From IMG/VR virus record IMGVR_UViG_3300036985_004145, positions 1-35,894 of that record: a stretch of DNA of 35,894 nucleotides; one strand, written 5' to 3'. Positions 2,576-28,880 of the stretch are shown here, one piece after another. The DNA is from a virus. The stretch's first letter is position 1, and each line of letters starts with the position of its first letter. The notes under the pieces are model-generated. The model had not been told where the DNA came from. It searched no databases and saw only the letters and a program-made list of their open reading frames with translations. The position numbers and the translations under genes are program-made.

Positions 2576-2854
2576 ATGGCCACGAAGCGCATCGACAAGG
2601 CCAACACGCCGTGCAACAGCCCGAAGCGGACGCCGCTGCACCCGAATAAATCGCATGTCGTCAAGGCGTGCGTGGGTGAAAAGCAGAAGGTGATCCGCTT
2701 CGGAGAGAAAGGTGCCAAGACGGCAGGTGCGCCCAAGCTTGGCGAGGGCACCTCGGTCAAGAACAAACGGAAGAGTGTCAAGGCTCGCCACCGGGAAGAC
2801 ATCGCCAAGGGTAAGATGTCCTCGGCGTGGTGGTCGGATAGGGAGAAGTTCTAA
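2576..2854 (+). CDS. Small conserved basic phage protein
   Basis: 92 residues. Motifs seen: SPKRTPLHPNKSHVVKAC near residues 15-32, VIRFGEKGAKTAG, and a C-terminal KARHREDIAKGKMSSAWW. I recognise this pattern (SPKRTP..P.KSHVVKA, then RF(G), then FKARH...I.KG..SA.YW) from many marine and podovirus-like phages, where it is a hypothetical protein, possibly the family listed as DUF6321. Function is unknown. It lies in the operon just before the adaptor gene, sharing a TAATG overlap with it, so a virion or assembly role is plausible. Confidence 0.7.
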   Translation: MATKRIDKANTPCNSPKRTPLHPNKSHVVKACVGEKQKVIRFGEKGAKTAGAPKLGEGTSVKNKRKSVKARHREDIAKGKMSSAWWSDREKF

Positions 2855-8685: not shown

Positions 8686-8810
8686 TGGTAGTTTCAAATA
8701 AACCGCCAACAATGGCGCGTGTGCCTGTCGCACCACAACGTGCGGCGGTTCCCACGCAAGCGCCCGCGCAGCGCTTTCCAAGAAAGGGAATCGGACGTGA
8801 GACGCATTGA
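8685..8810 (+). CDS. Possible 41-residue Pro/Arg/Ala-rich peptide
   Basis: A short frame starts with an ATG overlapping the fibre stop (TAATG) and runs to a TGA at 8808-8810, overlapping the amidase start at 8797 by 14 bases. The product begins [19 protein letters not shown] and is basic with many prolines. The overlap style matches real gene pairs here, and without it there would be a 111-base gap before the amidase, unusually long for this operon. No homolog is recognised and there is no strong ribosome site, so it could be leader sequence. Confidence 0.35.
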   Translation: MVVSNKPPTMARVPVAPQRAAVPTQAPAQRFPRKGIGRETH

Positions 8811-9441
8811 CGAAATTGTCGTCCATTGCACGGCCACCGTGCCGGACTGGATGGCGAACAAGCCGACGACCGCCAAAGTGGCCGAGGTGCGCGCGTGGCA
8901 CATAAAGGATCGCGACTGGAAGGACATAGGCTATCATTTTCTGATCGACCGGGATGGCACTGTCGCCAAGGGCCGGCCTCTTGGGCAGGTCGGCGCGCAT
9001 GTGCAGGGGCACAACACCGGCACCATCGGGGTGAGCCTGATCGGGGGCTTCGGCTCGTCGGCGGATGACGCTTTTGAGGACAACTTCACGCCGGAGCAAG
9101 ACGAGGCGCTGCGGGGTCTGATCGAGCGTCTGGAGCATGAGTATCCAACGATCACCAAGGTCACCGGCCACAATGCCTATGCCGCGAAGGCCTGCCCCGG
9201 GTTCCGGGTCGACAAGTGGCTTGGCACCGCTCCGCCGGAGCGCACGAGCCTTCTCCAGTCCACCACGGTGCAGGCGTCGGCTGTGCAGCTGGCCACGGGC
9301 GTGGGCGCTGCTGCCTCGGGTGTCGCGGCGCTTGACGGGACCGCGCAGCTTGTCGCTCTCGCCGTCGCAGGGGTCGTTATCCTCGCCGCGGCGTGGATCA
9401 TGCGCGAGCGGATCAAGAAATGGGCGAACGGTGTGCGATGA
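8797..9441 (+). CDS. N-acetylmuramoyl-L-alanine amidase endolysin with C-terminal TM anchor
   Basis: 214 residues from GTG at 8797 (GAAAGGG upstream). This start gives the usual family beginning RRIDEIVVHCTAT. It cleaves the amide bond between N-acetylmuramic acid and L-alanine in peptidoglycan. Amidase_2/T7-lysozyme-type residues are visible: zinc ligands H10, H125 and C133 (GHN...ACPGF), plus Y46 in the YHFLIDRDG motif and K131, matching the catalytic Tyr and Lys of T7 lysozyme. Unlike T7 lysozyme there is an extra C-terminal 70 residues: an Ala/Val/Thr-rich linker and a TM segment (about residues 181-200) followed by RERIKKW. The enzyme is thus likely membrane-tethered. It heads the lysis cassette; the stop overlaps the i-spanin start (ATGATG). 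Confidence 0.9.
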   Translation: MRRIDEIVVHCTATVPDWMANKPTTAKVAEVRAWHIKDRDWKDIGYHFLIDRDGTVAKGRPLGQVGAHVQGHNTGTIGVSLIGGFGSSADDAFEDNFTPEQDEALRGLIERLEHEYPTITKVTGHNAYAAKACPGFRVDKWLGTAPPERTSLLQSTTVQASAVQLATGVGAAASGVAALDGTAQLVALAVAGVVILAAAWIMRERIKKWANGVR

Positions 9442-9842: not shown

Positions 9843-11711
9843 ATGCCTCTGACCAAGCTCCAGTTCCGGCCCGGGATCGACCGCGAGACCACCGACTACA
9901 CCAACGAAGGTGGCTGGTGGGATTGTAACCGCATTCGCTTCCGCGACGGCATGCCGGAGACTGTCGGGGGCTGGTCCAAGTATTCGAGCAGCACGTTTCT
10001 CGGCACCTGCCGGGCTCTGATCGGCTGGCGGACGCTGGACGGCAACCAACTCTTGGGCGTCGGGACCAACCTCAAATACTACCTGAACCGCGGCGGGCAG
10101 TTCTTCGACATCACCCCTCTTCGTGCCACGACTGCTGCCGGGGGCGTAACTTTCGCTGCGACAACGGGCAGCACGGCGGTCACGGTTTCTGACACATCGC
10201 ACGACGCGGTCGTGGGCGATTTCGTGACGTTTTCTGGCGCGGTGTCTCTGGGCGGGGATCTCAGTGCTGTGGTTTTGAACCGCGAATACCAAGTCGTCAC
10301 TGTCATCGGGGCCAACAGCTACACCATTACGGCGCCGACTCCGGCCACCAGCGGGGACACCGGGAACGGCGGAATACTGACCGTGGGTGCCTATCAGATC
10401 CAAGTGGGACTCGACACCTCGATTGTCGGCACCGGCTGGGGCGCAGGTGCGTGGGGAGCTGGCGGCTGGGGCTCCCCTGCCGACACGAGCGTTGCGGGCG
10501 CGCAGTTGCGTCTCTGGTCGCACACGGCCTATGGTGAGGACCTTGTCTACTGCCCTAGTGGCGAGAACATCTACTATTGGGACCGGACCAGCGGCCTGAC
10601 CGCCCGCGGCGTGACGCTGGCGTCCCTGCCCAGTGCCAACCAGAGCCCGACCGTGGCGAACATGGTCTTGCTGTCGGAGCGGGACCGGCACCTTCTCGCC
10701 TTCGGGGTCGACGATGCGTTCACCCCCGGGGTTCTCGATCCCTTGCTCATCCGGTTCTCGTCTCAGGAGAGCCTGACCGATTGGGAGAGCCGGCCGACAA
10801 ACACCGCAGGCAGTCTGCGCATCAGCTCGGGCATCAAGATCGTCACCGCGGTGCAGACTCGGCAGCTGATCCTTGTTCTGACAGACGCGAGCGTGCACAC
10901 CGTGCAGTTCCTCGGGCCCCCGTTCACCTTCGGCCTGTCTGAAGTTGCCTCTGGCACGACCATCGCAAGCCCGAACGCGGCGGTATCTGTCGGCGACGAA
11001 GTGCTCTGGATGGGCCAAGGCGAGTTCTATCGGTTCAACGGCCTCGTGCAGCAGGTCCCCTGCGGCGTGAAGTCTTACGTCTTCGAAGACATCAACACGA
11101 CGCAGTATGCGAAGGTCACCGCGGGCCACAACTCGTCCTTCGGCGAGGTCTGGTGGTTCTACCCGTCGGCCGACAGCCAAGAAAATGACCGCTACGTCAC
11201 CTACAACTACCTGCAGCAGATATGGTATTACGGGGAGCTCGCGCGCACGGCGTGGATCGACCGCGGCGTGCTGCAGAGCCCGATTGCGGCCAGCCCAGAG
11301 GGCTACCTGTACTACCACGAGACCGGCGTCGCCGACGGGGAATACACCCCGGCCACCAGCCTCGGTGCCTATGTCGAGTCGAGTGCGGTGGACCTCGGCG
11401 AGGGTGACCAATACATGTTCATCACCCGGATGATCCCGGACATCACGTTCGCGCGGTCGACCGGAGAGACTGCGCCGACGGCGACCATGACGATCAAGAT
11501 GCGGAACTTCCCGGGCGGCGGGAACACAACCAACAACGCCCGGATGATCACGCAGACGGTTGCGGCCCCCGTCGAGGAGTTCACCGAGCAGCTCTACCTC
11601 CGCCTGCGGGGCCGCTCCGCAATCTTCCGGGTGGAATCTGACTGCGCCTGCACCGCGTGGCGGCTTGGCAGCCCGCGGGTGGACATCCGAACTGATGGCC
11701 GCAAATCATGA
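9843..11711 (+). CDS. Phage DNA-stabilisation / tail-hub protein (P22 gp10-like)
   Basis: 622 residues. The N-terminus (MPLTKLQFRPGIDRETTDY, NEGGWWDCNRIRFRDG, PETVGGWSKY) is a clear match to the family annotated as packaged-DNA stabilisation protein in many marine podovirus-like phages. A Gly/Trp motif, GTGWGAGAWGAGGWG, lies around residues 197-211. The C-terminal half has a beta-propeller-like pattern (LYYHETGVADG, YVESSAVDLGEGDQYMFITR). In P22 the equivalent gp10 forms the tail hub that binds spikes and closes the portal. The gene follows the lysis cassette after a 47-base gap that may hold a promoter. RBS is AGGAG. A long minus-strand frame opposite is a shadow. Confidence 0.85.
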   Translation: MPLTKLQFRPGIDRETTDYTNEGGWWDCNRIRFRDGMPETVGGWSKYSSSTFLGTCRALIGWRTLDGNQLLGVGTNLKYYLNRGGQFFDITPLRATTAAGGVTFAATTGSTAVTVSDTSHDAVVGDFVTFSGAVSLGGDLSAVVLNREYQVVTVIGANSYTITAPTPATSGDTGNGGILTVGAYQIQVGLDTSIVGTGWGAGAWGAGGWGSPADTSVAGAQLRLWSHTAYGEDLVYCPSGENIYYWDRTSGLTARGVTLASLPSANQSPTVANMVLLSERDRHLLAFGVDDAFTPGVLDPLLIRFSSQESLTDWESRPTNTAGSLRISSGIKIVTAVQTRQLILVLTDASVHTVQFLGPPFTFGLSEVASGTTIASPNAAVSVGDEVLWMGQGEFYRFNGLVQQVPCGVKSYVFEDINTTQYAKVTAGHNSSFGEVWWFYPSADSQENDRYVTYNYLQQIWYYGELARTAWIDRGVLQSPIAASPEGYLYYHETGVADGEYTPATSLGAYVESSAVDLGEGDQYMFITRMIPDITFARSTGETAPTATMTIKMRNFPGGGNTTNNARMITQTVAAPVEEFTEQLYLRLRGRSAIFRVESDCACTAWRLGSPRVDIRTDGRKS

Positions 11712-12846: not shown

Positions 12847-14085
12847 ATGGTCCTACCCCTTCTTCTTGGCGCGCTGGCGCCGCAGCTTCTGACAGGCATG
12901 TCGCCTCTGCTGGCCGGGGCCATCGGGTCAGGTATCGGCGGAGCGATCCAGTCAGGTGACCTCGAGACAGGTCTGCTGACCGGCCTCGGTGCCTTTGCCG
13001 GTGGCAGTCTTCTTGGTCCGATGCTTGGCGGTGGCGCTGATGCAGCTGCGCAGGCAGCTGCATCTGCCGCCCCGGTCGCGGTGCCCGCGGGGCAGATTTC
13101 CACAGGTTCTCTGGCTGCCGGGCAGACGGCTCTCGCGCCCGGTGCCGCAGGCGTGACGGGGATGTCGCCCGCACAATTCATGCCGCCGCCCACGGCGACT
13201 GCGATCCCGGCCCCGGCCCCGGCGAATGCCGGTATTGCCGGAGGCCTCAAAGGTCGCATCGGGGAGGCCTTCAAGTTCGCCAAGTCGCCCACGGGCATGG
13301 GCGTCGGCATCGGTTCCATGGCGGGGCCCATGCTGGCCGGAACGCTCGGCCTCGGCGATGACGGTGGTGGCAAGAAGGGTGGCGGCAAGGGTCGCCCCGG
13401 AGACAAGGAGCCTCGTGCGATCCCGCGTATCCCCGTGATGCCCGGGGTGGGCTACCGACCGGGGACGAGCGGCGAGCACAACTACGGCATCGGCACCCCC
13501 TATAGTGCCGGCCAGATCATGAATTACACCAACAACGGGGTGCTTCCCTATGCCGACGGCGGCATGCTGCAGCGCATGGTGAACCCGAATCTTCCGATCC
13601 TCGGCCCGGTCCGGCTGTCGCGCGGCGGTATCGTGGCGCTGGCCGAAGGAGGCGACCCCGGGGAGCAGGCGCAGGCTCCGAACGAGCGCGAAGTGATCTC
13701 TGCGGCCGTCGCGGCGGTCAAGGGGCAGCACCCGCAGCCCGAGATCGCCCTTGGTGCCTTCCTTGCGCAGTACGGCGAGGAGGCTCTGCGCCAGCTCGTT
13801 GACGCAGTTGAGGGCGGGAAAATGGGCGAGACCGCGGATCGGTTCGCCGAAGGCGAGAAGGGTGAAGTCCGCGGCCCGGGCGACGGGTCCGGCAAGGACG
13901 ACATGGTGCCCGCCAAGATGGACGACGGTTCTGGCGACGTTCTGCTCTCTGATGGCGAGTTCGTGCTTCGCAAGGACGCCACCGACTCCCTCGAGCGCAT
14001 GTTTGGCGGCGGATTCCTTGACTCGGTCAACAAGGCCGGGCCCAAGGCCGCGGATGTCGCCCGTCGGCGGATGGCAATGGGATGA
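12847..14085 (+). CDS. Putative internal virion / ejection-block protein, Gly/Ala-rich
   Basis: 412 residues, RBS AGGAG. The first 70 residues are hydrophobic and glycine-zipper-like (LLAGAIGSGIGGAIQ, GAFAGGSLLGPMLGGG), a trait of proteins that insert into or cross membranes during ejection. The centre is Pro/Ala-rich and Lys/Gly-rich. The C-terminal third carries a known phage signature: VRGPGDGSGKDDMVPAKM followed by VLLSDGEFVLRKDATD and a Gly-rich GGGFLDSVN. That signature occurs in internal or tape-measure-like proteins encoded before giant ejection proteins. Function is inferred. The stop overlaps the next start (ATGA). Confidence 0.65.
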   Translation: MVLPLLLGALAPQLLTGMSPLLAGAIGSGIGGAIQSGDLETGLLTGLGAFAGGSLLGPMLGGGADAAAQAAASAAPVAVPAGQISTGSLAAGQTALAPGAAGVTGMSPAQFMPPPTATAIPAPAPANAGIAGGLKGRIGEAFKFAKSPTGMGVGIGSMAGPMLAGTLGLGDDGGGKKGGGKGRPGDKEPRAIPRIPVMPGVGYRPGTSGEHNYGIGTPYSAGQIMNYTNNGVLPYADGGMLQRMVNPNLPILGPVRLSRGGIVALAEGGDPGEQAQAPNEREVISAAVAAVKGQHPQPEIALGAFLAQYGEEALRQLVDAVEGGKMGETADRFAEGEKGEVRGPGDGSGKDDMVPAKMDDGSGDVLLSDGEFVLRKDATDSLERMFGGGFLDSVNKAGPKAADVARRRMAMG

Positions 14086-14522
14086 GGAACGTCCGGTGCC
14101 TCCCTGTGCCGAAGGAGCACCTCACGACAATCTGGCCGGTCGTCTCCCCCCTGTTGGCGAAAGCTGTGGCAACCGCGCCGGGCAAGTTGAGTGTTGAGGA
14201 CGTTCTCGACGGGGCTTACAACGGCACCTACTTGCTCTGGCTCATCCTCATTGACGAGAAGATCGTCGCGACGGTCACCACCCGGATCATCGTTTACCCC
14301 AAGTGCCGCGCCATGGCGCTGGACTGGATCGGCGGGGAGCGTATGCGGGAGTGGCTTAGCCCCGCGATGCGTGTTATGAAAGAGCATGCCCTTCGGAACA
14401 ACTGCTCCCATCTTGAAGGTTACGGCCGGGAAGCTTGGGACAGGTGGGGTAGACGAGAGGGCTGGCGGCCGGACTATGTGGCCTTCAAGATGGATTTGAC
14501 CGATGGCGAACTCCCTGTATAA
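14082..14522 (+). CDS. GNAT-like phage protein
   Basis: 146 residues, ATGA overlap with the previous gene. The layout fits the acetyltransferase (GNAT) fold: an N-terminal strand-helix (RCLPVPKEHLTTIWPVV), strands LLWLILIDEKIVATVTTRIIVYP and AMALDWIGG, a long helix (MREWLSPAMRVMKEHALRNN), then HLEGYGREAWDRWGRREGW typical of the GNAT C-terminal GR..W.r....Gw motif. The canonical acetyl-CoA loop (R/Q-x-x-G-x-G/A) is poor, so it may be inactive or structural. Similar small GNAT-like proteins sit in virion operons of other podovirus-like phages. Substrate unknown. Confidence 0.65.
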   Translation: MRNVRCLPVPKEHLTTIWPVVSPLLAKAVATAPGKLSVEDVLDGAYNGTYLLWLILIDEKIVATVTTRIIVYPKCRAMALDWIGGERMREWLSPAMRVMKEHALRNNCSHLEGYGREAWDRWGRREGWRPDYVAFKMDLTDGELPV

Positions 14523-15591
14523 CCCGTTCAGCATCTTGCGCCACGTGCACCCGCGGAGCGCGGGCATGATGGTTTTTGGCGGCTCTGGCAACACGACGTC
14601 GACGGTCACGCAGCAGGACATCCCCAAGGAGTTCTACCCGTATTTCGAGCGGATGCTGGTGCGTGGGGAAGAGGCGAGCCTTGAGCCCTACATGCCATAC
14701 GACGACCCCCGCATGGCGGGTCAGACGGCCGACACCCTCGCGTCGCAGGACATGATTCGGAACATTGCGTCGGCCGGTCAGCCGGGGCTCGACTTTGCCA
14801 CCGACACCGCGACGCAGAACATCACCAACATCGAGGGTCTGGCCGAGGGCGACCCCTATCAGTTCTCGCAGTATCAGTTCGGCCCATCGGGCACGTTCAC
14901 CGGCGACGCGGTCTCGCAGTACATGTCCCCCTACATGGAGAACGTGCTCGATCTGCAGAAAGAACGTGCACAGGAAGACTATCTGACTGCCCAAGGCGGC
15001 CGGAGCGCTGCCGCGGTGAGCGCAGGGGCCTTCGGCGGATCACGCCAAGCTGTGGCGGAATCCTTGGCCGAACGCGACATGTTGTCGCGCATGCGCGACA
15101 TCGACGCCACCGGGATGCAGTCAGCGTACAGCGACGCCCAGCAGATGTTCGAGGCCGACCGGGCCGCCCGGATGCAGACGGATCAGTCGCAGGCAGGTGA
15201 GCTTTCCCGGGTGCAGGCCGGTCAGTCCGGGGAGAACCTTGCGCGCGATCAGTTCGGGATGCAGGCCTTCAGCACCTCGTCGGATATGGCTGGGCAGTTG
15301 GCGGACCTGTCGGAGAGGGCCCGTGCCGGCGACATCCAAGCGGCACAGCTCCTCGAGCTTGTCGGGCGGTCGAATGAGGCGCGGTCGCAGGCCGAGCTTG
15401 ACCTTGGCTATGAGGACTTCATCCGCCAGCAGGACTATCCGATGGACCGGCTCCAGCAGCTGTCCGCGATGCTGCACGGGCTGCCCATCGCCAACGCAGG
15501 CACAACGACACAGCAGGTGCCGTACAACCCGATCCAGCAGGCGCTCGGCATGGGCATCTCGGCGATTGGCCTCTACAACGCCATGGCATAA
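14503..15591 (+). CDS. Putative internal virion / ejection protein, helical
   Basis: 362 residues; the start lies 20 bases inside the end of the previous gene. The N-terminus has VFGGSGNTTSTVTQQDIPKE. The central and C-terminal parts are long, Gln/Ala-rich and helical (AVSQYMSPYMENVLDLQKER, then repeated Arg/Gln/Ala helices), ending in QQDYPMDRLQQLSAMLHGLP and a Gly/Ile/Leu tail. The YMSPYMENVLDLQK and SAMLHGLP patterns recur in internal proteins encoded upstream of giant ejection proteins in marine phages. Probably packed in the capsid or ejected. No enzymatic motif. Confidence 0.65.
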   Translation: MANSLYNPFSILRHVHPRSAGMMVFGGSGNTTSTVTQQDIPKEFYPYFERMLVRGEEASLEPYMPYDDPRMAGQTADTLASQDMIRNIASAGQPGLDFATDTATQNITNIEGLAEGDPYQFSQYQFGPSGTFTGDAVSQYMSPYMENVLDLQKERAQEDYLTAQGGRSAAAVSAGAFGGSRQAVAESLAERDMLSRMRDIDATGMQSAYSDAQQMFEADRAARMQTDQSQAGELSRVQAGQSGENLARDQFGMQAFSTSSDMAGQLADLSERARAGDIQAAQLLELVGRSNEARSQAELDLGYEDFIRQQDYPMDRLQQLSAMLHGLPIANAGTTTQQVPYNPIQQALGMGISAIGLYNAMA

Positions 15592-15600
15592 AGGTGCGGC

Positions 15601-17502
15601 ATGAACATCCTTGACGTACAGGACAAGCTGAAAAATCTCTCCGAGCAGCAGCTCGTGCAGGAGATGCAGATGCCGTCTGGCTCAGCGCCGCAGTTTCTCG
15701 TCTTGTCGGAGATGTCCCGGCGCAAGCGGATGCGGGATGATCTGACGAGCGCCCAGCAAGCTCCGCAGCGCACGGTTGCCGAAGAGGCCGTGGCCGCCGC
15801 AGGCGTCCCGCAGGCAGGTCTTGGGCAGATGGCCCGTGCCATGGCTCCACAGACCGACGTGACGCAGAACACTGGCATCGGTTCATTGATGCCGCAGGCC
15901 CCCGTGCAGGGTATGGCTGAGGGCGGCGAGGTCGGCGGTCCCACCGTCGTGCGCAACGGGCGCCGCTATACGCAGTTGCCGAACGGCATGCTGATCGACG
16001 CAGCGACAGGCCTCCCCGCCAATCCAACGTCTCCCCAAGATGAGATGCTCCTCGGCGCACAGGGCTTTGAGCGGCGCACCGGCCTGCCCGCAGACATCGA
16101 CGCCTACCTTGCCCGTCCGATGGACGGCGACTTCTGGACGACTGGCGTACCTCCCGCTCTGACCGGCTACGCTACTCATGCTGGCCCCCCGTCGCATGCC
16201 GCCCGCGCAGAGGTCGGGATTTCTCCTTATCAGGAAGATAACGTCTACGACTGGACGACTGGCGTACCTCCCGCTCTGACCGGCTACGCTACTCATGCTG
16301 GCCCCCCGTCGCATGCCGCCCGCGCAGACATCGACGCCTACCTTGCCCGTCCGATGGAGGGCGACTTCCTCCTCGGTGCCGAGGGCTTCGAGCGTCGCAC
16401 CGGGCTCTCTGCAGACATCGACGCCTATCTGGCGCGCACCGCGCCTGAGAACGGCGACTTCCTCCTCGGTGCCGAGGGCTTCGAGCGTCGCACCGGGCTC
16501 CCTGCAGACATCGACGCCTATCTGGCGCGCACCGCGCCTGAGAACGGCGACTTCCTCCTCGGTGCCGAGGGCTTCGAGCGTCGCACCGGGCTCCCTGCAG
16601 ACATCGACGCCTATCTCAACCCACCGGTGCCGGCACCGTTTTACGATTTCCCACCCTTCCCCGGGCGCAGCGGGTATGGCGGGGACCCAGACTTTGGGCC
16701 AAATAGCTTGGCGTCCATCCCCGAAGTTCTGCGGGGGCGAGTCGTCTTTGCTCCCGACGGGACCATGTCGTTCGAGATGCCCCCCGCACCTACCCTTGAC
16801 GAGTCGCGGGCTGCCCTGTCCGATACGTTTATGGGGGCCATTGAAAAGGACGAAGACCCGACGGCCACTGAAGATCCAGCCGCAGCAAAAGACGCCCCTG
16901 TTGCCCCCCGCCTGCCCGGCGGCCCAAGTGGGCCTAGCGGCTCCGGCTCCGGCTCCGGCGCGAGCGCCGCCCCTGTCTCGTCCTACGAGCAAGAGCTCAT
17001 CGACGCCATGAAGCGGTCGGAGAAGCGCGCAACGCAGGACAAGTGGCTGGCACTGGCGCAGGCTGGTCTGGCGCTCATGTCTTCTGCACAGCCGACGCTC
17101 GGCGGTGCCATTGGCGAAGCCGGACTTCAGGGTCTTGGTGCCTTCCGCGAAGGTCGCGACGCGTCCGAGGCCGAGCGCATGAAGCTGCTCGAAGCGCAGT
17201 ATGCCGTGCAGATGGCTCGGCAGCAGGCGACCTCTTCTGGCGGTGGCGGTGGCGGTGGCAGCGGCTTCGACCTCGGCGACATCAAGGAGCTCGTGGGCCT
17301 GTCCGCGAGCTTCGGCGAGCAGATGGCTACCATGACCGACATGAACGGTAGTCCCATCCCTGCGATGCAGGACGAGTACGAACGGGCGGCTGCCGCGCGG
17401 GCGCAGTTGAACAACATGATCTATAATATGTCGCTCTACCTTTTCCCGCAGACAGGCTCTGGTCCTGCAGGGGCGACGGATGACGTTGACGACATCAGGT
17501 GA
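15601..17502 (+). CDS. Internal virion protein with long in-frame repeats
   Basis: 633 residues. The N-terminus (MNILDVQDKLKNLSEQQLVQ, PSGSAPQFLVLSEMSRRKRM) is highly characteristic of a conserved protein encoded just before giant ejection proteins in marine podovirus-like phages. Residues 140-340 are a repeat region: 31-residue units containing DFLLGAEGFERRTG and PADIDAYLART, and two exact copies of a 25-residue block starting WTTGVPPALTGY. The C-terminal part is Pro/Gly/Ser-rich, then a long helix (EQELIDAMKRSEKRATQDKW, LAQAGLALMSSAQ) and a poly-Gly linker. The repeat block may act as a length-variable spacer. Function inferred only. Confidence 0.7.
   Translation: MNILDVQDKLKNLSEQQLVQEMQMPSGSAPQFLVLSEMSRRKRMRDDLTSAQQAPQRTVAEEAVAAAGVPQAGLGQMARAMAPQTDVTQNTGIGSLMPQAPVQGMAEGGEVGGPTVVRNGRRYTQLPNGMLIDAATGLPANPTSPQDEMLLGAQGFERRTGLPADIDAYLARPMDGDFWTTGVPPALTGYATHAGPPSHAARAEVGISPYQEDNVYDWTTGVPPALTGYATHAGPPSHAARADIDAYLARPMEGDFLLGAEGFERRTGLSADIDAYLARTAPENGDFLLGAEGFERRTGLPADIDAYLARTAPENGDFLLGAEGFERRTGLPADIDAYLNPPVPAPFYDFPPFPGRSGYGGDPDFGPNSLASIPEVLRGRVVFAPDGTMSFEMPPAPTLDESRAALSDTFMGAIEKDEDPTATEDPAAAKDAPVAPRLPGGPSGPSGSGSGSGASAAPVSSYEQELIDAMKRSEKRATQDKWLALAQAGLALMSSAQPTLGGAIGEAGLQGLGAFREGRDASEAERMKLLEAQYAVQMARQQATSSGGGGGGGSGFDLGDIKELVGLSASFGEQMATMTDMNGSPIPAMQDEYERAAAARAQLNNMIYNMSLYLFPQTGSGPAGATDDVDDIR
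16135..16328 (+). repeat. Exact 77-bp direct repeat (two copies) in a virion gene
   Basis: Copies at 16135-16211 and 16252-16328, identical by eye, offset 117 bases (39 codons, in frame). Each encodes the WTTGVPPALTGY block. The 40 bases between them encode a non-repeated stretch. Identity at DNA level, including silent positions, means a recent duplication. Confidence 0.85.
16363..16616 (+). repeat. 93-bp tandem repeats in a virion gene (2.7 copies)
   Basis: Units begin at 16363, 16456 and 16549, each 93 bases (31 codons); the third stops matching at 16616. Units one and two differ at one visible base (CTCTCT versus CTCCCT). A more diverged copy lies upstream at about 16041-16134. The near-identity shows recent expansion by slippage or recombination. 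Confidence 0.85.
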
Positions 17503-17558: not shown

Positions 17559-20500
17559 ATGTCCATCATCAGCGTCCCCGGTCCCATCAGCGGTAAAGGC
17601 TATCGCTTCCAGATCACCGGGGACACCCCGACGGTGGACGAGCAGCTGCGGATCGACCAGCGAATCAGCTTGAAAGAGCAGGCCTTCCGTGCCGATTACG
17701 AGTCGAAATATGGCGAGCTCAACTACGAGAACGGTTGGGAGCCCGCCGAGCAGACCGGCGAGTTCTTCAAAGGCATCGCCTCCGGCGGGCTTGGGATGGT
17801 GGAATCCGGCCTTGTTGGTGCCGCCACGCTGCTGCCCGAGTGGATGGAAGATCCGACGCGGGAATACATCAAGAGTACGGCATACGGCTGGAAGCCGCAG
17901 GCGGACATCGGCCGGGAAGACAGCACCATGGGCGCTCTCGGCTCAGGGCTTGGCTCTCTGATCCCTATCGCGGCTGCGACCTATTTCACGGGCGGCCTCG
18001 GGGGTGCTGCACTGTCGGGCGGCGCAGGTGTCGGAGAAGCATCAGAGCGTGCACGCGGTGCCGGTGCCACAGAGGAAGAGCGGACCAAAGCCGCGGCCCT
18101 TGGCATCATCCCCGGTGCATTCGATTACCTGCCTGTCGCGAGCATGGTCAGCCGGTTCGGCTCGCCTGTCGTCAAGGGGCTCAAAGCGACGCTCGGCCGC
18201 GTTCTTTTGCAGGGTGGGGAAGAAGCGCTGCAGGAAGCTGCGCAAGAAGCTGCGCAGAACCTGATCGCGAAAGAGGTCTACAACCCGGATCAGGAGATCG
18301 TCGAGGGCGTGGCCGGGGCCGCCGGCATGGGCGGCAGCGTTGGTGCTCTTGCACAGTCTCTCGTGGAGCTTGTTCTGCCGGGCAAACCCCGCCGTCAAGC
18401 ACGCATCATACCCGCAGGTCCGGGACCAATATCCCCCGGCCCTGCAACAACGGGCAGCAAAACAACGGTCACAACCGGCGGTCAGACCGTCACGCGCGTG
18501 AAACTCAGCGACGGTGCAGTGCTGGAGTTCGGGAGTAGCCCGACTCAAGCGCAGATTGACGCAGCACTGGCCCAGTACAACGCTACGAAGGAAGCCCCGC
18601 CTTCCCCGCCTCCCCCGCCTCCCCCGGCGACTGGGGGCGTAAGCGTCGACGAAGATGTCGTCGACGTGCAGAGTGTCTTTGAAGCGCGCAGGGCGAGGCT
18701 TGAAGAAGCCGGGGCGACGCCTGCTGAGGCACGTGCCGGAGCTGCGAGCGCGGCGCTCGACTATATGGACACCCTGCCTGCAGACCTAGCCGCGAGGCTC
18801 TCGTCACATCACAGTGTGCTGGAGCGGGCGGCCGGGCGCAAGCCCGTTGGCACGCCGCCTCCGGTTGCCCCGCCCCGAAGCACGTCCACGCGCGGTGATA
18901 TGTCCCCCTCCCTGCCGGATGCGGCCTACGCGTCTGAATTTGGTCCGACAGGGAAGCCGGACCTTTTTAGTACACCTGCGACGAAAGCTACGCCTGCGAC
19001 GGGTACCGCGTCGCCTCCGCCTGTGGCAACCCTCACCCCGGACTTCGTCACCAGCACTCTTGGGTTTGCCAAGGGCACAGCTCTTGCCAAGGCGGCAGCG
19101 AACGACCCTGAACTTGCCAGCAAGCCTCTCTCAGACCCGAAGGTGCAGGCTCGGCTGAACAGCCTGCTGTCCAACACCGTGGTGCCCGCGGCGCGCAAGG
19201 ACGCAATCCGTGCGGCGATGGCCACGCCTGTGCCCGCGTCGCCTCCGCCTGCGCTGTCCAACTACGAGGCCGAAGCCGACGCGTTTGAACGGGCTGTTCC
19301 GCCCGTGGCTGCGCCCGTGGCTGCGCCCGTGGCTGCGCCCGTGGCTGCGCCCGTGGCTGCGCCCGTGGCTGCGCCCGTGGCTGCGCCCGTGGCTGCGCCC
19401 GTGGCTGCGCCCTCGCAGGCTGTCGCCGATACCATGGCCGAGGAGCGTGTTCTCCGTCGACTGGCAGCGGGATCAATATCAAACCTAAAGAGCAGGTCAG
19501 ATCTGCCCGCAAAGAACGTCGCTGAGCTGGAAGCAAGGCTCGTCGAAGCGCGTGCTGCTGCCGCAACCCTGCGGAAGGGGGTGCCCGCCGACGTGCTCAA
19601 GCGGACTATGTCCGGTGATGAGGTGCCCGCAGAACTCCACGAGGCCGTGGAGAAACTGCAGGTGAAGGTAAACTGGGCACGGGCGGCGGCAAACACGGCC
19701 AAGGCCGCGGTGCCCGCCAAACCTACCCACCCGGCGCGGCCCAAGAGCCTTGCGGCTTACAACGAAGCCTTGACCAAGCTACGCGACCTCGAGACGCAGC
19801 TCGCCGCCGCCCAAGAAACCCTCTCCGTGTCGGAGATGTCGGCAGCAATGCGACGCCGCGTGGACACCGCAGAGAACGTAACCGAGAAGGACCAGAAGGC
19901 TTACGTGAAGTATGTAGGCGCCCTCCGCGAGGCACACGGCCTACGACAGGAGCTGGACACCGAGCGCGCTCGTGCGGAGGCTCTCGAGCCGCCTGCCCCG
20001 ACGATGCCCGATTTGAACACCCCCGTGACCCCCGACACATGGTTGACTGCCCAGCGGGGGATGTCGCCCCCGGTGCCCGCTGCGCCCTCGCAGGCTGTCG
20101 CCGATACCATGGCCGAGGAGCGTGTTCTCCGTCGACTGGCAGCGGGCTTCATAGAACGCACGACAGAGATCTATCGCAAGTTGACGTCCAGTCGCGGCGC
20201 CATCAACAACCGCTACTCTTGGGTAACCATCCCAGACCAGACCACGCTCGAGGACAAGCAGGCAGTTCTCACCCTCCTTGGGCGCGTCCCCAACGAGGAG
20301 CAGTCGAAGCGCGGACATCCAGTGGCGGGGCGGTTAACGCCCCAAGAGACGGCCGCGAGTCTGTATTTCAGCAAGGTGGTCCGCCCGCAGGACGCCATCG
20401 ACCTGATGATTGACGATACCATCGTAGATTACGATGTGTACCGCGAACAGCCTGACGTGGTCGGGGAAGAGGCTGCGCTGAAGGAATTGTTCCGTGGCAC

Positions 20501-23500
20501 CGGCTCCAAGGCCGCCAAGCTCGCCCTCGAGTGGGTGCGGGCCAACATGTCACCGAAGACGAACCGGCGCGTAGACAACTTGGCGATGATGAACGCCCAG
20601 TGGACCGAGAACCAACAGACGTGGACTGGGCTATCCATGGCAGACCTCAACAATCCGGACACAGCCCTTTCGAGAAGCCTTCCCGACCGGGTTGTCGTGA
20701 AGCGCGCGGCGAAGAAAAAGCACAAGGAAGACCTCGCGGCAGCGCTCAGGGACTTCTTCGACGACGCGGGTGTGACTATTGCCAAGATGGCCAAGCGTAA
20801 CCCGCTCGTCGGACTCGACACCCGCCTGCACTACACTGTCAGGCTGGCCCTCGTCAACGGGAACCTGCGCATGGCGCTGCGGGCTTTGGCGGTAACCTCG
20901 CCGAGCCCTGACGTTCGAGCCCTTGCAACAGCCCTTGCGGATCGTGTCGGCACAACGCGTGTGGAGATTGTCGAACCGGGCACAGAGGGGTTTAACTTAC
21001 TCACCGACGAAGGTTCCGACGCTGGGTACACCTCCGCGACAGCGACTGAGCCTTACTGGCAGAACCTGATCTTGCTGCACCCGACGCGGGGCGTCAACGC
21101 CCACGCCCTTCTACACGAGATGATGCACGCCGTCACGGCTACCATCGTGCGCGACCCGCCGAACCACCCGGTAACGGAGCAGTTGCAGGCCCTGCTGGAG
21201 TCGGTGCGCAAAGAAGGACCCGCGCCAGTCGACGGCGTGTATCCGGATGGCTTCTATGGTCTGACGAGCGTCGAGGAGTTTGTGGCTGAGGTCATGGGGC
21301 GCGTCGGAATCGGATATAAAGACAACGGGCTGCGCGATCTGATGTCCCGTACGATGGCAACCCGACCGGGAGCACCGCCGCTGACCAACGGGCAGTGGTT
21401 CTTGGAGATTATTGCCAACATGGCCAACTGGATGATGGGTCGGCCGACCAGACCTTGGCCGCGCAGGATGAACCGCAAGGTCATTCAAGAGACAACCCTC
21501 GACGCCGCCGAGCGCCTGATCAAGGGTATCATGTCCCCGGCACAGCAGGCGCTCCCGGCAACAGTTCTGGCGGACGCGGCGACCAACCCGACGATTGCCC
21601 GGCTGGCTATGAGGAACGCGGTCATGTCCGCACCCGTCTGGGATGCGGAGGGGCGAGAGCGCCTGCGGTCGAACCTGCGAGCGAGCTGGTCCTCCAAGGC
21701 TCGACAAACCTTGCTTGGGGCCCTGCAGTTGAGCTGGCTCGCCGACATTACCGGCAAGTGGCTCCCGGAAGTACGGGAGCTGCAGCGGCTCGACGATCTC
21801 AAGCGCGGGTACTTTGACAGCCTGTACCGCAAGACCAAAGTGACGATGGACGATATTTCAAAGTTCCTTTCCGCAAACCCGGACGGGTTCCGCGAGCTTA
21901 TGGCCCTTGAAGGTCAAGCCACGCTCGCCGGGGTGGACCCAACCAAACCGGGGACTAACTACGACGGGGACCAAGAAAAGCTTTCCGAGTGGCACGCGCT
22001 TTCCCTCAGGCTCGCCGCGCTCGGGCCCGACGCCAAGGCGCTTTTCCAGAAGCTGCGCAATCACAACACTGCGTATCGCAAGGAAATCGAGTCGGCCTTG
22101 TGGGAGCAGGTCAAGGCCGTCACCGCCGACGAAGTGACGCGCAACAACCTCTATACCAAGCTGATGGAAAAGCTCACCTCGGAGGGGGTCATTGACCCGT
22201 ACTTCTCTTTGATGCGGGAAGGGGATTTCTGGTTGGCATACACTGCCGAGGATCTTTCAGCCTCGCCAACCACGCTCGACGGGGTGACCCGCTACCCGCC
22301 CGACCGCTTTGTGCACGCATTTTCGTCAGCGTGGGAGCGTGACAGGGTCATCCAGAAGATCAAGGCGGCGCGAAACGACCGTGGGGAGCCGGTTCTTATC
22401 GGAGAGCCCGAGTCCTTCATGCGCCAAGACGCGTTCAGTTCGGATCGCAGTGTGCAGCCGGAGTTCATCCAGTCTACGTTGCAAATCATCAACAACATCC
22501 TCCCGGGCAGGGAGTTCGACGCTGAGCGGGGCGCGGCAGTTGAGGCGATCCAAGATCTGTTCATGAAGTTCACTCCGGCCCACTCGCTGCTGCGGTCGTT
22601 CACCAAGCGCAAGGGGGTCAGAGGCTTCATCGGAGACGTCACTCCCGCAGGCATCATCGACACTCCACACAACATGGCCCATGTACTGGCAGAGAAGGCG
22701 TCGAGCATGGCGCACCAGCTGGCAAACATGAAGTATGGGGCCAAGGTTCAGGCTCTGACGAACAAGGCGCAGCAGACCTACTCTGAGCAGAACGCACGAT
22801 CGGACCTCAACTCTGGGGACAAAGTCGAGCTGAAGGCTTATTACGAGGAGTTCAGACTGCGGGCGGCGTTTGTGAAAAACCCGAAGAGCAGCCGTGGCGC
22901 GCAGATGGTGCGGGGCATAGCGTTCAACATGACGCTGGGCTTCAACATCTCCGCGATGACAAACGCCCTCTTCCAGATCCCGATGGTTGCCTACCCGATA
23001 CTTACCGGGCGCTACGGGAGTAAAGCGACGCTGAGGGCGCTCGGGTTTGCCACCAAGATGTTGGCAAACGCGGGAAAAACATACCGACAGACTGCTTTCG
23101 GCGCCGAGGGCGATGAGGCGAGAACGCAGTCCGACGTAGACCACATTGGTGCCATAACCAACTATTTCGAGGTGGCAGAGGACGGCACGCTGCGGCTGCG
23201 CACCGACGCGGACGCGCCGAACTTCCTACTCGTCGACGCAAACGCAGACCCCACCTCGCCAAAAGAGGTGAAAAATGCAGAGCTGCGCCGCCGCATCGGC
23301 GAGATGGACGCTCTCGCCGAGGCCCTGTCCTCCCATGGCATGCTGACCCACTCGCAAGGTATGGAACTGCTGGCCGCGGACAACGATTGGCTCACCAGCC
23401 TCAACAAGTGGTCGGGCTTCGGACTGCACCACGCAGAGCGGTACAACCGGCAAGCCACGGCTATTGCGGCCTATACGCTGGCGCTTGGCAAGGTGCGTGC

Positions 23501-24620
23501 GGCAGACGGTAGCGTTACCCAAGCGGACAAGGTGGCTGCCGCAGAGGAGGCGCTCTTTACAGCCGACGAAGTCAACGGCAGCATCGGCCACGCGGTGGGG
23601 TCACGGATCGGGTTTACCGGTGTCGGCTCCGTGATCATGCTGTTCAAAAACTACGGTCTGTCGATGGCCCGTACCCTCGTCAAGATAACAAAGGCTGCAC
23701 TCAAGACCATCGACCAGAATCTCGGCCCCGAACACGCCCAGTACGCTCGGGAGCAGCGTGCGATCGCACGCTACCAACTCGGTGGGCTGCTTGGCGCCGC
23801 TGCGCTGTTCTCCGGGGTGCAGGGTCTGCCGTTCTACGGCGAGCTCATGTCTCTGCTGAACGCCCTGTTTACGGACGACGATGAGGAAGACTTTGAGACG
23901 ATCCTGCAGAAATACATAGAGCAGCCCTTCTACCACGGAGCCGTCAACTACCTGAGCGGGGCCGAGGTCGCGTCGCGGATATCGTTCAGCGGGCTGTTCT
24001 TCAGAGAGAACAAAATCCAGAAGGATCAGTTCTGGCTATACGACCTGATCGAGACTTTCGGCGGCCCAGCTGTCGGTGTGGCGATGAACGCGTCCCGAGG
24101 GGTTGACCTTATTGCGCAGGGGGAGGTGTATCGCGGCGTAGAGGCCATGGCGCCCGCAGTGGTAAGAAACCTGATGAAGAGTGGTCGCTACGGCTTTGAA
24201 GGCGCGCGAACAATCCGGGGTGATGAAATCATACCGCTATCCAAGTGGGATATCGCGCTGCAGATGGCTGGGTACACTCCCGCGGTCTATGCGCGCCGGC
24301 AAGAGACTGTGTCTGGCGAGCGGAAAATCCGGGAGTCGATACGCAAGGAGAAGAGCAGCCTGTACCGCAAATACTTCCTCGCCCAGAATGAGGGGGACTA
24401 CGAGGAGGCTCGCGAGATCATGCGCGAGATGCAGGAGTTCAACAAACGCAACCCGACCACTGCTATCACGCGGGATACCCTGAAAAAGTCGATGGACGCT
24501 TACAAGAACCGGACGGCGGAAATGATCAGCGGCGTGAGCTTCAGCAAGTCTGATCGTCCCCTCGTTCTCGCCAGTCTTGCGGAGTACGACGACAACCCTA
24601 CCCTCTGGTCCGGCGAATAA
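17559..24620 (+). CDS. Giant polyvalent ejection-type virion protein with HEMMH metallopeptidase motif
   Basis: 2353 residues. Residues 1-250 hold Gly/Ala-rich amphipathic segments and a GEEALQEAAQEAAQN helix. Residues 270-640 are Pro/Ala-rich linkers with a (PVAA)9 run at 582-617. Residues 640-840 are coiled coil. A zinc-metallopeptidase site, HEMMH, is at 1186-1190 inside ALLHEMMHAVTATIV, with a likely third ligand in TSVEEFVAEVMG about 50 residues later (E1240 or E1244). The C-terminal 1100 residues resemble large polyvalent-protein-associated regions, with hydrophobic stretches near 1786, 2007 and 2072 and a charged helical tail. By analogy with T7/N4-type internal proteins it is probably packaged and ejected with DNA, the peptidase acting on wall, membrane or host proteins. 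A minus-strand-specific terminator follows directly. Specific domain-family names cannot be verified here. Confidence 0.75.
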   Translation: MSIISVPGPISGKGYRFQITGDTPTVDEQLRIDQRISLKEQAFRADYESKYGELNYENGWEPAEQTGEFFKGIASGGLGMVESGLVGAATLLPEWMEDPTREYIKSTAYGWKPQADIGREDSTMGALGSGLGSLIPIAAATYFTGGLGGAALSGGAGVGEASERARGAGATEEERTKAAALGIIPGAFDYLPVASMVSRFGSPVVKGLKATLGRVLLQGGEEALQEAAQEAAQNLIAKEVYNPDQEIVEGVAGAAGMGGSVGALAQSLVELVLPGKPRRQARIIPAGPGPISPGPATTGSKTTVTTGGQTVTRVKLSDGAVLEFGSSPTQAQIDAALAQYNATKEAPPSPPPPPPPATGGVSVDEDVVDVQSVFEARRARLEEAGATPAEARAGAASAALDYMDTLPADLAARLSSHHSVLERAAGRKPVGTPPPVAPPRSTSTRGDMSPSLPDAAYASEFGPTGKPDLFSTPATKATPATGTASPPPVATLTPDFVTSTLGFAKGTALAKAAANDPELASKPLSDPKVQARLNSLLSNTVVPAARKDAIRAAMATPVPASPPPALSNYEAEADAFERAVPPVAAPVAAPVAAPVAAPVAAPVAAPVAAPVAAPVAAPSQAVADTMAEERVLRRLAAGSISNLKSRSDLPAKNVAELEARLVEARAAAATLRKGVPADVLKRTMSGDEVPAELHEAVEKLQVKVNWARAAANTAKAAVPAKPTHPARPKSLAAYNEALTKLRDLETQLAAAQETLSVSEMSAAMRRRVDTAENVTEKDQKAYVKYVGALREAHGLRQELDTERARAEALEPPAPTMPDLNTPVTPDTWLTAQRGMSPPVPAAPSQAVADTMAEERVLRRLAAGFIERTTEIYRKLTSSRGAINNRYSWVTIPDQTTLEDKQAVLTLLGRVPNEEQSKRGHPVAGRLTPQETAASLYFSKVVRPQDAIDLMIDDTIVDYDVYREQPDVVGEEAALKELFRGTGSKAAKLALEWVRANMSPKTNRRVDNLAMMNAQWTENQQTWTGLSMADLNNPDTALSRSLPDRVVVKRAAKKKHKEDLAAALRDFFDDAGVTIAKMAKRNPLVGLDTRLHYTVRLALVNGNLRMALRALAVTSPSPDVRALATALADRVGTTRVEIVEPGTEGFNLLTDEGSDAGYTSATATEPYWQNLILLHPTRGVNAHALLHEMMHAVTATIVRDPPNHPVTEQLQALLESVRKEGPAPVDGVYPDGFYGLTSVEEFVAEVMGRVGIGYKDNGLRDLMSRTMATRPGAPPLTNGQWFLEIIANMANWMMGRPTRPWPRRMNRKVIQETTLDAAERLIKGIMSPAQQALPATVLADAATNPTIARLAMRNAVMSAPVWDAEGRERLRSNLRASWSSKARQTLLGALQLSWLADITGKWLPEVRELQRLDDLKRGYFDSLYRKTKVTMDDISKFLSANPDGFRELMALEGQATLAGVDPTKPGTNYDGDQEKLSEWHALSLRLAALGPDAKALFQKLRNHNTAYRKEIESALWEQVKAVTADEVTRNNLYTKLMEKLTSEGVIDPYFSLMREGDFWLAYTAEDLSASPTTLDGVTRYPPDRFVHAFSSAWERDRVIQKIKAARNDRGEPVLIGEPESFMRQDAFSSDRSVQPEFIQSTLQIINNILPGREFDAERGAAVEAIQDLFMKFTPAHSLLRSFTKRKGVRGFIGDVTPAGIIDTPHNMAHVLAEKASSMAHQLANMKYGAKVQALTNKAQQTYSEQNARSDLNSGDKVELKAYYEEFRLRAAFVKNPKSSRGAQMVRGIAFNMTLGFNISAMTNALFQIPMVAYPILTGRYGSKATLRALGFATKMLANAGKTYRQTAFGAEGDEARTQSDVDHIGAITNYFEVAEDGTLRLRTDADAPNFLLVDANADPTSPKEVKNAELRRRIGEMDALAEALSSHGMLTHSQGMELLAADNDWLTSLNKWSGFGLHHAERYNRQATAIAAYTLALGKVRAADGSVTQADKVAAAEEALFTADEVNGSIGHAVGSRIGFTGVGSVIMLFKNYGLSMARTLVKITKAALKTIDQNLGPEHAQYAREQRAIARYQLGGLLGAAALFSGVQGLPFYGELMSLLNALFTDDDEEDFETILQKYIEQPFYHGAVNYLSGAEVASRISFSGLFFRENKIQKDQFWLYDLIETFGGPAVGVAMNASRGVDLIAQGEVYRGVEAMAPAVVRNLMKSGRYGFEGARTIRGDEIIPLSKWDIALQMAGYTPAVYARRQETVSGERKIRESIRKEKSSLYRKYFLAQNEGDYEEAREIMREMQEFNKRNPTTAITRDTLKKSMDAYKNRTAEMISGVSFSKSDRPLVLASLAEYDDNPTLWSGE
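19301..19408 (+). repeat. Nine perfect 12-bp repeats encoding (PVAA)9
   Basis: The unit GCCCGTGGCTGC is repeated nine times without change and gives a Pro-Val-Ala-Ala linker in the giant virion protein. Silent positions are identical, so the tract is recent and likely length-variable. Confidence 0.95.
19404..20146 (+). repeat. 68-bp exact direct repeat pair flanking a coiled-coil segment
   Basis: Identical 68-base copies at 19404-19471 and 20079-20146, offset 675 bases (225 codons, in frame). Each encodes SQAVADTMAEERVLRRLAAG. The first copy follows the (PVAA)9 tract. Recombination between copies would cleanly remove the coiled-coil module and keep the frame. Confidence 0.9.
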
Positions 24621-27866: not shown

Positions 27867-28880
27867 TCAGTCTTCCGAGTCATCCCACTGGCTGATGACG
27901 CTGGCGAGGTCGGTCTTGGTGACGCTGCCGACAGCACTCTTCGCGGTGCGCTTGATCGGCTCCTCATCCTCGTCTTCTTCGACGGGCTTGGTTTTTGCCT
28001 TCGGCTTGATCGGCTCCTCATCCTCGTCTTCTTCGACAGGCTTGGTTTTTTCCTTCGGCTGCGTCTTCGGCTTGGCCTTCGGAGCTTCTTCCTCCTTGAC
28101 CTCGATCGCCCGCGTCTTCGGGTTGTAGCTATGGGTGCCCCCTGCGGAGACCCCAGCCGTCTGCGACACCGTCATGGTGATCGCTGCAAGCGCCGCGGCG
28201 CTGTCCTTGGCATCGACCGCGACCTGCAGTTCTGCCTCACTCAGCGGGCGGACCGGCTTGAAGTAGAGCTTCGGGGTCTCGGTGTCTTCGTCAAAGGAGA
28301 TACCCGTCACCACGGCGATGGCCGGGGTGTTGTGCGCAGCGAGCAGCTTGGCGTAAGCCTGCATGCCCATGTTCCCCGCCTTGGCTTCCCCGAAGATTGA
28401 CGTCGCCGGGAGCTGCATCTGGTAGACGGTGTTCTCGGTGTCGCCTTCGACCGTCACAGCAAGACGTTGGCTGTATCGGCAGGCACGGCTGTCGCCTTGC
28501 CCCGAACCTTTCACGTTCATCGGGCAGTTTGCGCAGCTGGGGGACATCCGCTGATCGGCAGGCACGTCCGCGTTCGGCGCCTTCGTGTCCGAGGACCAGC
28601 ACTGCGGCGGCGTCGCCACATTCGGGTTGTAGGTCCCCTCGAAGTAGGTGCGGCCGATCGGTGCGGCGTTCACGATGACCACATTCAGTTGGTCACCCTT
28701 GAACACCCGCACCTGCTCGCCGCCGACGATCTCGCGGAAGCGGCCGCCCTTGATGCTGATACGCGGTGCACCTGTGCCGGAACCAGCAAGGGTCTTGTTC
28801 ATGCCCAGCAGGGACTTGAACAGATCGCTGCCGGCCAGTGCGTTGCCTTTTCCGCCGAAAAGGGTCATTTCGCTCGTCAT
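27867..28880 (-). CDS. ssDNA-binding-like phage protein with Cys cluster and acidic tail
   Basis: 337 residues, start overlapping the HTH gene stop (ATGA), RBS AAGGAG. The N-terminal 240 residues form a conserved phage domain with ISIKGGRFREIVGGEQ and a cysteine cluster, one Cys in PPQCWSSDTKAP then SPSCANCPMN and SRACRYSQRLAV; these four Cys may bind zinc or an Fe-S cluster. The tail (from about 250) is Lys/Glu-rich with two 18-residue repeats (TKPVEEDEDEEPIK) and ends WDDSED. A terminal acidic aromatic-containing tip is a hallmark of SSBs such as T7 gp2.5 and bacterial SSB, where it recruits partners. Position directly before the primase-helicase supports a replication role. SSB assignment is inference; no OB fold can be proven by eye. 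Confidence 0.65.
   Translation of the reverse strand: MTSEMTLFGGKGNALAGSDLFKSLLGMNKTLAGSGTGAPRISIKGGRFREIVGGEQVRVFKGDQLNVVIVNAAPIGRTYFEGTYNPNVATPPQCWSSDTKAPNADVPADQRMSPSCANCPMNVKGSGQGDSRACRYSQRLAVTVEGDTENTVYQMQLPATSIFGEAKAGNMGMQAYAKLLAAHNTPAIAVVTGISFDEDTETPKLYFKPVRPLSEAELQVAVDAKDSAAALAAITMTVSQTAGVSAGGTHSYNPKTRAIEVKEEEAPKAKPKTQPKEKTKPVEEDEDEEPIKPKAKTKPVEEDEDEEPIKRTAKSAVGSVTKTDLASVISQWDDSED
27951..28058 (-). repeat. Two tandem 54-bp repeats in the acidic tail of the SSB-like gene
   Basis: Units 27951-28004 and 28005-28058 differ at two visible bases and encode the 18-residue acidic block containing KPVEEDEDEEPIK twice. In-frame, recent duplication. Confidence 0.85.

What the first reader, a model, noticed from the sequence alone, without database searches (positions are those of the whole stretch)
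17559..24620. A 2353-residue polyvalent virion protein with a zinc-metallopeptidase core
The sequence shows HEMMH at residues 1186-1190 with a possible third ligand (E1240 or E1244 in SVEEFVAEVM), embedded in a huge multi-segment protein: membrane-active-looking N-terminus, Pro/Ala linkers, coiled coil, peptidase, long helical C-terminus. Known biology: some phages eject large multi-domain proteins with DNA. Inference: this peptidase would be delivered into the host at entry, where it could cut wall-associated or host proteins, or mature the virion.
Basis: partly seen in the sequence, partly recalled or inferred. Interest (0 to 1): 0.6.

Follow-up and report, generated by a model that had tools for sequence, protein, structure and literature searches.

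The report
Phage DNA-ejection protein carrying a protease
A short-tailed phage carries a giant protein of the class that is normally packed in the virus head and shot into the bacterium with the DNA, and this one contains a well-preserved zinc protease; that makes it a new member of a known class of phage proteins whose protease target is still unknown.

Summary
The ORF 17559-24620 (2353 aa) is intact, and HEMMH lies at residues 1186-1190. In 42 diverse relatives H1186, E1187 and H1190 are the only invariant columns, and E1240 is acidic in all 42 (40 E, 2 D), so E1240 is the likely third ligand; E1244 is second-shell. Of 67 long relatives, 64 have HExxH in this slot and the other 3 have HExxxH; shuffles give 0.6%. 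AlphaFold2 folds residues 1076-1310 well (pLDDT 85). The best structural match is the anthrax lethal factor catalytic domain (M34), followed by Pro-Pro endopeptidases and the N4 virion RNA polymerase C1 domain. The rest carries LPD39 and the PLxRFG 'tail-700' domain. Its C-terminal body is distantly but collinearly related to the ejection-core protein of PhiM1/phiKMV, and gene order fits a podovirus ejection operon. I conclude it is an internal ejection (polyvalent) protein with a probably active gluzincin: a new member of a known kind (Iyer 2017). The fresh point is that the same zincin sits in PhiM1 gp48 and phiKMV gp37, which are labelled endolysin-like. Virion presence, catalysis and substrate are not shown. 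Action after ejection is favoured over virion maturation.

The parts
17559..24620 (+). Giant ejection/polyvalent protein, 2353 aa
   Evidence: Open frame; NF032893 E 3e-90; LPD39 E 7e-14
17559..18458 (+). N-terminal domain, residues about 1-300: Gly-rich, weakly hydrophobic, probable membrane/ejection segment
   Evidence: Homology of the N-terminal region in 16 relatives; G157 invariant in 40 aligned; weak match to virion RNA polymerase family phrog_2206, E 2e-4, and N4 vRNAP N-terminus, hhalign E 9e-5
18519..19418 (+). Pro/Ala-rich linkers, residues about 321-620
   Evidence: Pro-rich segments 321-380, 421-500, 551-620
19300..19412 (+). 12-bp tandem repeat, 9.4 copies, coding (PVAA)n
20109..20798 (+). 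Poorly conserved middle region, residues 851-1080; no Pfam match
   Evidence: Homology to 8 relatives only; no Pfam
20826..21458 (+). Zincin (gluzincin) domain, residues about 1090-1300
   Evidence: AF2 model pLDDT 85.1, pTM 0.82; VIA Z 8.0 to lethal factor; A2 profile
21114..21128 (+). HEMMH, residues 1186-1190 (two Zn ligands and general base E1187)
   Evidence: Invariant in 42 relatives; 64 of 67 long relatives
21255..21257 (+). Y1233, counterpart of the catalytic Tyr of lethal factor/PPEP (inferred)
   Evidence: Y in 35 of 42; YG(x5)E alignment to lethal factor
21276..21278 (+). E1240, predicted third Zn ligand
   Evidence: 40 E + 2 D of 42
21288..21290 (+). E1244, probable second-shell residue
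   Evidence: 33 E of 42
21690..22193 (+). LPD39, residues 1378-1545
   Evidence: Pfam PF18858 E 7e-14, above cut-off
22413..24548 (+). PLxRFG / tail-700 domain, residues 1619-2330, helical body
   Evidence: NF032893, 303.6 bits against cut-off 100; AF2 model pLDDT 79; distant homology to PhiM1/phiKMV ejection protein
14503..15591 (+). 362-aa predicted DNA ejection protein, same operon
   Evidence: phrog_4287 E 5e-17; homologues in 41 loci, upstream of the giant gene in the 14 listed
15601..17502 (+). 633-aa protein directly upstream, possible second ejection protein
   Evidence: Homologues directly upstream in L020 and L021; in L031, L032, L048, L054 and L060 the 362-aa homologue is a single longer ORF reaching the giant gene

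Best explanation
The ORF is the large internal ejection protein (the gp16-class or 'polyvalent' protein) of a podovirus. It is predicted to be stored in the capsid core and shot into a Gram-negative host ahead of or with the DNA (inferred from homology and synteny). Its N-terminus associates with the envelope (inferred). Its C-terminal LPD39/PLxRFG helical body builds the core (shown as homology, function inferred). The zincin between residues 1090 and 1300 binds Zn through H1186, H1190 and E1240, with E1187 as base and Y1233 probably helping. This is shown as conservation and predicted fold; catalysis is inferred. I commit to the protease working after ejection, on a host-side or envelope target, rather than maturing the virion. 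The reasons are that in PhiM1 gp48 and phiKMV gp37 no separate payload domain is known that self-cleavage could release, and that the N4 relative is reported to be packaged uncut.
For: Motif and third ligand conserved across divergent relatives. Well-predicted zincin fold, with M34 lethal factor, PPEP and N4 vRNAP C1 (residues 2135-2356) among the closest solved structures and phage internal core proteins and a virion-encapsulated RNA polymerase among the closest viral models. Zincin profile against the PhiM1 gp48/phiKMV gp37 family: hhalign probability 97%, E 7e-11, and against PDB sequences: 9sfn_G E 8e-7, 8vb2 E 1.7e-6. C-terminal body against the same family: E 4.6e-5 over 427 collinear columns, while 13 reversed or column-shuffled controls gave E 0.3 or worse; that family in turn matches T7 gp16, E 3e-4 over 303 columns. 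LPD39 and PLxRFG domains. Ejection-gene homologues in 41 related loci. Bacterial genome hits are mostly from Pseudomonadota. Papers: PMC11440229, PMC12633501, PMC5512222.
Against: No proteomics shows the protein in virions. No activity is known to me for any member. The C-terminal model found no significant PDB fold and T7 gp16 only at Z 3.7-4.0. The N-terminus has weak hydrophobicity in this member. Phages exist whose equivalent protein lacks the zincin: 14 of 57 bacterial-genome ORFs with the body have neither HExxH nor HExxxH upstream, so the protease is not universally required for ejection.
Confidence: 0.55

Rival explanations
1. Self-processing: after ejection (or late in assembly) the zincin cuts the giant protein at its Pro/Ala-rich linkers and separates the N-terminal envelope segment from the rest.
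For: Iyer et al. propose autoproteolysis for polyvalent zincins and cite cleavage of P1 DdrB (PMC5512222). Pro-rich segments lie between N-terminal domain and zincin here and in 34 of 52 relatives. PPEP (Pro-Pro endopeptidases) are among the closest folds, Z 6.6.
Against: 18 of 52 relatives lack such a linker. PhiM1 and phiKMV proteins have no recognised payload to release. N4 vRNAP is reported to be packaged unprocessed.
Confidence: 0.25
2. Envelope clearing: the zincin cuts peptide cross-links or envelope proteins to open the path of the ejection channel, taking the place of the transglycosylase of T7 gp16.
For: No transglycosylase or lysozyme domain was found in this giant protein, while Skulduggery's has an SLT domain. 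The PhiM1 authors assign their zincin-bearing region to peptidoglycan digestion.
Against: Skulduggery has both SLT and an HExxH domain. The M34/PPEP fold cuts proteins, not murein, in characterised members (own knowledge). A separate amidase gene lies at 8719-9441.
Confidence: 0.12
3. The zincin fold is kept for a structural role (folding, packaging) and catalysis is unimportant.
For: The region containing the MPTase is needed for encapsidation of N4 vRNAP (PMC5512222).
Against: H, E, H and the third acidic residue are kept while the rest of the domain diverges to 13-41% identity with the window, the signature of catalysis; and the slot is exchangeable for other domains.
Confidence: 0.06
4. 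A DarB-type antirestriction protein, as the PHROG label says.
For: phrog_10089 'DarB-like antirestriction' E 1e-50.
Against: The best stretch covers the C-terminal body (1952-2328) only; no helicase or methylase domain is found, whereas Skulduggery and PBC5 have helicase domains, and Skulduggery a methyltransferase-like match.
Confidence: 0.02

Closest known systems
Polyvalent proteins with zincin-like MPTase (Iyer et al. 2017, PMC5512222); N4 virion RNA polymerase gp50
   Same: Giant multi-domain phage protein, zincin followed by a large helical C-terminal part; zincin matched at the right place of N4 gp50; N-terminal weak match
   Different: No RNA polymerase; the C-terminal body shows no detectable homology to N4 C2
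Ejection-core proteins PhiM1 gp48 (PDB 8vb2) and phiKMV gp37 (1337 aa, same length as PDB 9sfn_G)
   Same: Zincin domain E 7e-11 and C-terminal body E 4.6e-5, collinear; last gene of an ejection operon
   Different: This protein is about 1000 aa longer, with Pro-rich linkers and an N-terminal part that does not match theirs; their domain is labelled endolysin/transglycosidase-like
DarB-like/PLxRFG giant proteins of Skulduggery, Lastavirus, PBC5
   Same: LPD39 + PLxRFG body; after virion structural genes in Skulduggery and SopranoGao
   Different: They are 2.5-4.4 kaa and several carry helicase, methylase or SLT domains; this one has none detected
M34 lethal factor catalytic domain and PPEP Pro-Pro endopeptidases
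   Same: Fold (Z 8.0 and 6.6), HExxH...YG(x5)E(x3)E pattern
   Different: About 14% identity; phage context; substrate unknown

Membership tests
Gluzincin zinc peptidase | HExxH plus a downstream Glu third ligand | tested here: met
   64 of 67 long relatives HExxH, 3 HExxxH; E1240 acidic in 42 of 42
Gluzincin zinc peptidase | Zincin fold | tested here: met
   AF2 pLDDT 85, pTM 0.82; best matches are zincins. Z 8 is moderate; the sequence profile agrees independently
Gluzincin zinc peptidase | Metal binding and proteolysis | not testable with these tools
   Needs protein
M34 (lethal factor) peptidase family | Sequence relation to M34 | tested here: inconclusive
   Profile E 9e-4 to lethal factor; Pfam ATLF in 3 of 42 members at weak E; other zincin families match as weakly or better
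Polyvalent protein (Iyer 2017) | Large multi-domain protein with LPD and MPTase domains | tested here: met
   LPD39 above cut-off; zincin; relatives with ART-PolyVal or FtsK_gamma
Polyvalent protein (Iyer 2017) | Delivered into the host with the DNA | not testable with these tools
   Inferred from homology
PLxRFG / tail-700 family (NF032893) | Score above curated cut-off | tested here: met
   303.6 bits against 100
gp16-class ejection-core protein | Homology of the C-terminal body | tested here: met
   To PhiM1/phiKMV: E 4.6e-5, 427 columns; controls E 0.3 or worse. Direct match to T7 gp16 not significant by sequence
gp16-class ejection-core protein | Third gene of an ejection operon | tested here: inconclusive
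   362-aa ejection-protein homologue and 633-aa gene directly upstream; a gp14 counterpart was not identified
gp16-class ejection-core protein | Present in the virion core | not testable with these tools
   No proteomics
DarB antirestriction protein | Helicase/methylase domains | tested here: not met
   Pfam finds only LPD39 above cut-off

The most novel reading that the evidence does not exclude
A catalytic zincin is a standard module of the podovirus DNA-ejection core: the same domain in N4 gp50, phiKMV gp37, PhiM1 gp48 and many PLxRFG giant proteins. In PhiM1 and phiKMV it goes under an endolysin/transglycosylase label. Each infection would then inject a protease with an undiscovered host or envelope target.
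Probability: 0.4. Interest if true: 0.6.

Novelty: new member of a known kind. Interest (0 to 1): 0.38.

Why it matters
Zincins in polyvalent phage proteins were predicted in 2017, but the papers read here report no substrate for them. This finding links that prediction to ejection-core proteins with solved structures and genetically tractable phages (phiKMV, PhiM1), where published annotation calls the region endolysin-like, or reports no proteolytic domain in phikmvvirus genes (PMC7552054). That makes the question 'what does the ejected protease cut?' directly testable.

Tried and rejected
The search for related loci with the single full protein or the peptidase alone found no relative; the alignment A1 was needed. 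Pfam on the window's peptidase region alone gives nothing. tblastn of the peptidase against isolated phages: no match. The C-terminal model has no significant PDB fold; T7 gp16 appears twice at Z 3.7-4.0 with about 200 aligned residues, kept only as suggestive. C-terminal body against N4 vRNAP: no homology. The CRP-901 and DSL-LC04 last structural genes (759 and 1068 aa) are not detectable homologues and lack HExxH. I considered that the phiKMV zincin might be the unknown protease behind Rac-induced cleavage of RNA polymerase alpha, because a GNAT gene lies in this operon; I rejected it because Rac alone causes the cleavage (PMC7552054). The DarB label is rejected on domain content.

Full report
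What is there. Window 17559-24620 is one intact 2353-residue ORF at the end of the + strand structural module of a 35.9-kb viral contig. Ahead of it lie an SU10-type adaptor (2854-3522), an amidase (8719-9441), a virion structural protein at 9843-11711 (phrog_3287; some matches are annotated stabilization or needle proteins), a small GNAT-like gene (14082-14522), a predicted ejection protein (14503-15591, phrog_4287) and a 633-aa protein (15601-17502). Behind it, on the other strand, are DUF927, SNF2 helicase and nuclease genes. The same neighbours (362-aa homologue upstream, opposite-strand DUF927 and SNF2 genes downstream) recur in dozens of related contigs.

The peptidase. HEMMH is at 1186-1190. 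No Pfam model or isolated-phage sequence recognises the region alone, so I built an alignment with giant proteins of Skulduggery, SopranoGao, PBC5, douglas 12A4 and Mwe-JY07 and used it to fetch 80 IMG/VR relatives out of 322. Of 67 ORFs long enough, 64 have HExxH in the slot and 3 have HExxxH, a variant Iyer et al. describe; shuffles give 0.6%. These ORFs were fetched with the whole C-terminal alignment and the scan patterns lay in the body, so the motif was not what selected them. The 42-member peptidase set (A2) itself was chosen by having HExxH, so the informative columns there are the others: E1240 acidic in 42 of 42, Y1233 in 35, E1244 in 33. E1240 is therefore the best candidate for third ligand. 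Pseudomonas phage Rollin shows HEMGH...EEVLAD in the same place.

Fold. AlphaFold2 with A2 gives pLDDT 85, pTM 0.82. VIA-align ranks the lethal factor catalytic domain first (Z 8.0, rmsd 4.1, 155 aligned; 4dv8), then Certhrax (6.9), PPEP-2 (6.6) and N4 vRNAP C1 domain residues 2135-2356 (6.0). Foldseek against PDB is weak (best E 0.056, probability 0.96, lethal factor); against viral models it finds phage internal proteins and polyvalent proteins. The sequence profile independently finds 9sfn_G 'Internal virion protein' (E 8e-7), 8vb2 PhiM1 gp48 (E 1.7e-6), 23sg gp10 and lethal factor (E 9e-4). Two independent methods thus agree. From memory, lethal factor uses H686, E687, H690, Y728 and E735; the spacing from Tyr to the ligand Glu is seven in both.

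The rest of the protein. LPD39 at 1378-1545 and the PLxRFG domain at 1619-2330 define the C-terminal body. An AF2 model of 1286-2353 is good (pLDDT 79) but has no significant PDB match. Profile comparison shows the body is related to the PhiM1/phiKMV ejection protein: E 4.6e-5 over 427 columns in the same order relative to the zincin, against E 0.3 or worse in 13 reversed or shuffled controls. That family matches T7 gp16 (E 3e-4), while A3 alone does not. The N-terminal domain is conserved in relatives and weakly related to the N-terminus of N4 vRNAP (phrog_2206), whose isolated N-terminal domain enters nanodiscs (PMC12633501). The middle is variable: Pro/Ala linkers and, in some relatives, ART-PolyVal or FtsK_gamma.

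The slot is modular. Among 57 bacterial-genome ORFs with the same body, 27 have HExxH, 16 HExxxH and 14 neither in the 450 residues upstream. In PBC5, a Thauera and a Pseudothauera protein a RadC/JAMM-like motif (HNHPxG...D) sits at the same distance from the C-terminus. So the protease is an exchangeable catalytic module, which speaks against a purely structural role.

Mechanism. Shown: conserved catalytic set, predicted fold, homology to packaged ejection proteins, operon position. Inferred: packaging, ejection, membrane contact, catalysis, target. I favour action after ejection on a host or envelope target (about 0.55), then self-processing at linkers (0.25), envelope clearing as a murein-type substitute (0.12) and structural (0.06). 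Virion maturation is disfavoured because the related N4 protein is reported to be packaged unprocessed (PMC5512222) and PhiM1 gp48 is modelled inside the capsid as part of the ejectosome (PMC11440229).

Novelty. Polyvalent zincins, including the one in N4, have been known since Iyer et al. 2017, and PMC8472413 repeats it for Schitoviridae. The present protein is a new member. Not found in the papers searched: recognition of the zincin in PhiM1 gp48 (its region Asp268-Asp528 is called endolysin/exotransglycosidase-like) and phiKMV gp37 ('endolysin domain'), or its tie to PLxRFG giants. The library lacks most subscription papers, so prior recognition cannot be excluded.

Noticed in passing
16360-16616: 93-bp tandem repeat (31 codons, 2.8 copies, 99%) in the 633-aa gene directly upstream of the giant gene.
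   Followed up: no
19300-19412: Perfect 12-bp repeat, 9.4 copies, coding (PVAA)n in the giant gene: likely length-variable linker.
   Followed up: partly
14082-14522: Small GNAT-like protein in the ejection operon; homologues at a corresponding upstream position in 7 related contigs, and an acyltransferase gene in the same area of Lastavirus and CRP-901.
   Followed up: partly
L091:7198-10986: PhiM1 gp48 residues about 379-517 (inside the region its authors call endolysin/exotransglycosidase-like) match the zincin profile, HEAAH at 385.
   Followed up: yes
L092:9567-13577: phiKMV gp37 carries HEAVH at 423 and the zincin profile match, although PMC7552054 states no proteolytic domain is predicted in phikmvvirus genes.
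   Followed up: partly
L116:3596-7552: T7 gp16 has HERLH at residue 559; the zincin profile hit to T7 gp16 is only E 0.01 and lies at 678-708. May be chance.
   Followed up: no
L081, L082, L085, L006: HExxxH instead of HExxH in the same slot of large relatives.
   Followed up: partly
L004 (PBC5), L128, L148: RadC/JAMM-like HNHPxG...D motif at the zincin position, about 1085-1126 residues from the C-terminus.
   Followed up: partly
27950-28060: 54-bp tandem repeat, 2.1 copies, in the minus-strand 337-aa gene 27867-28880.
   Followed up: no
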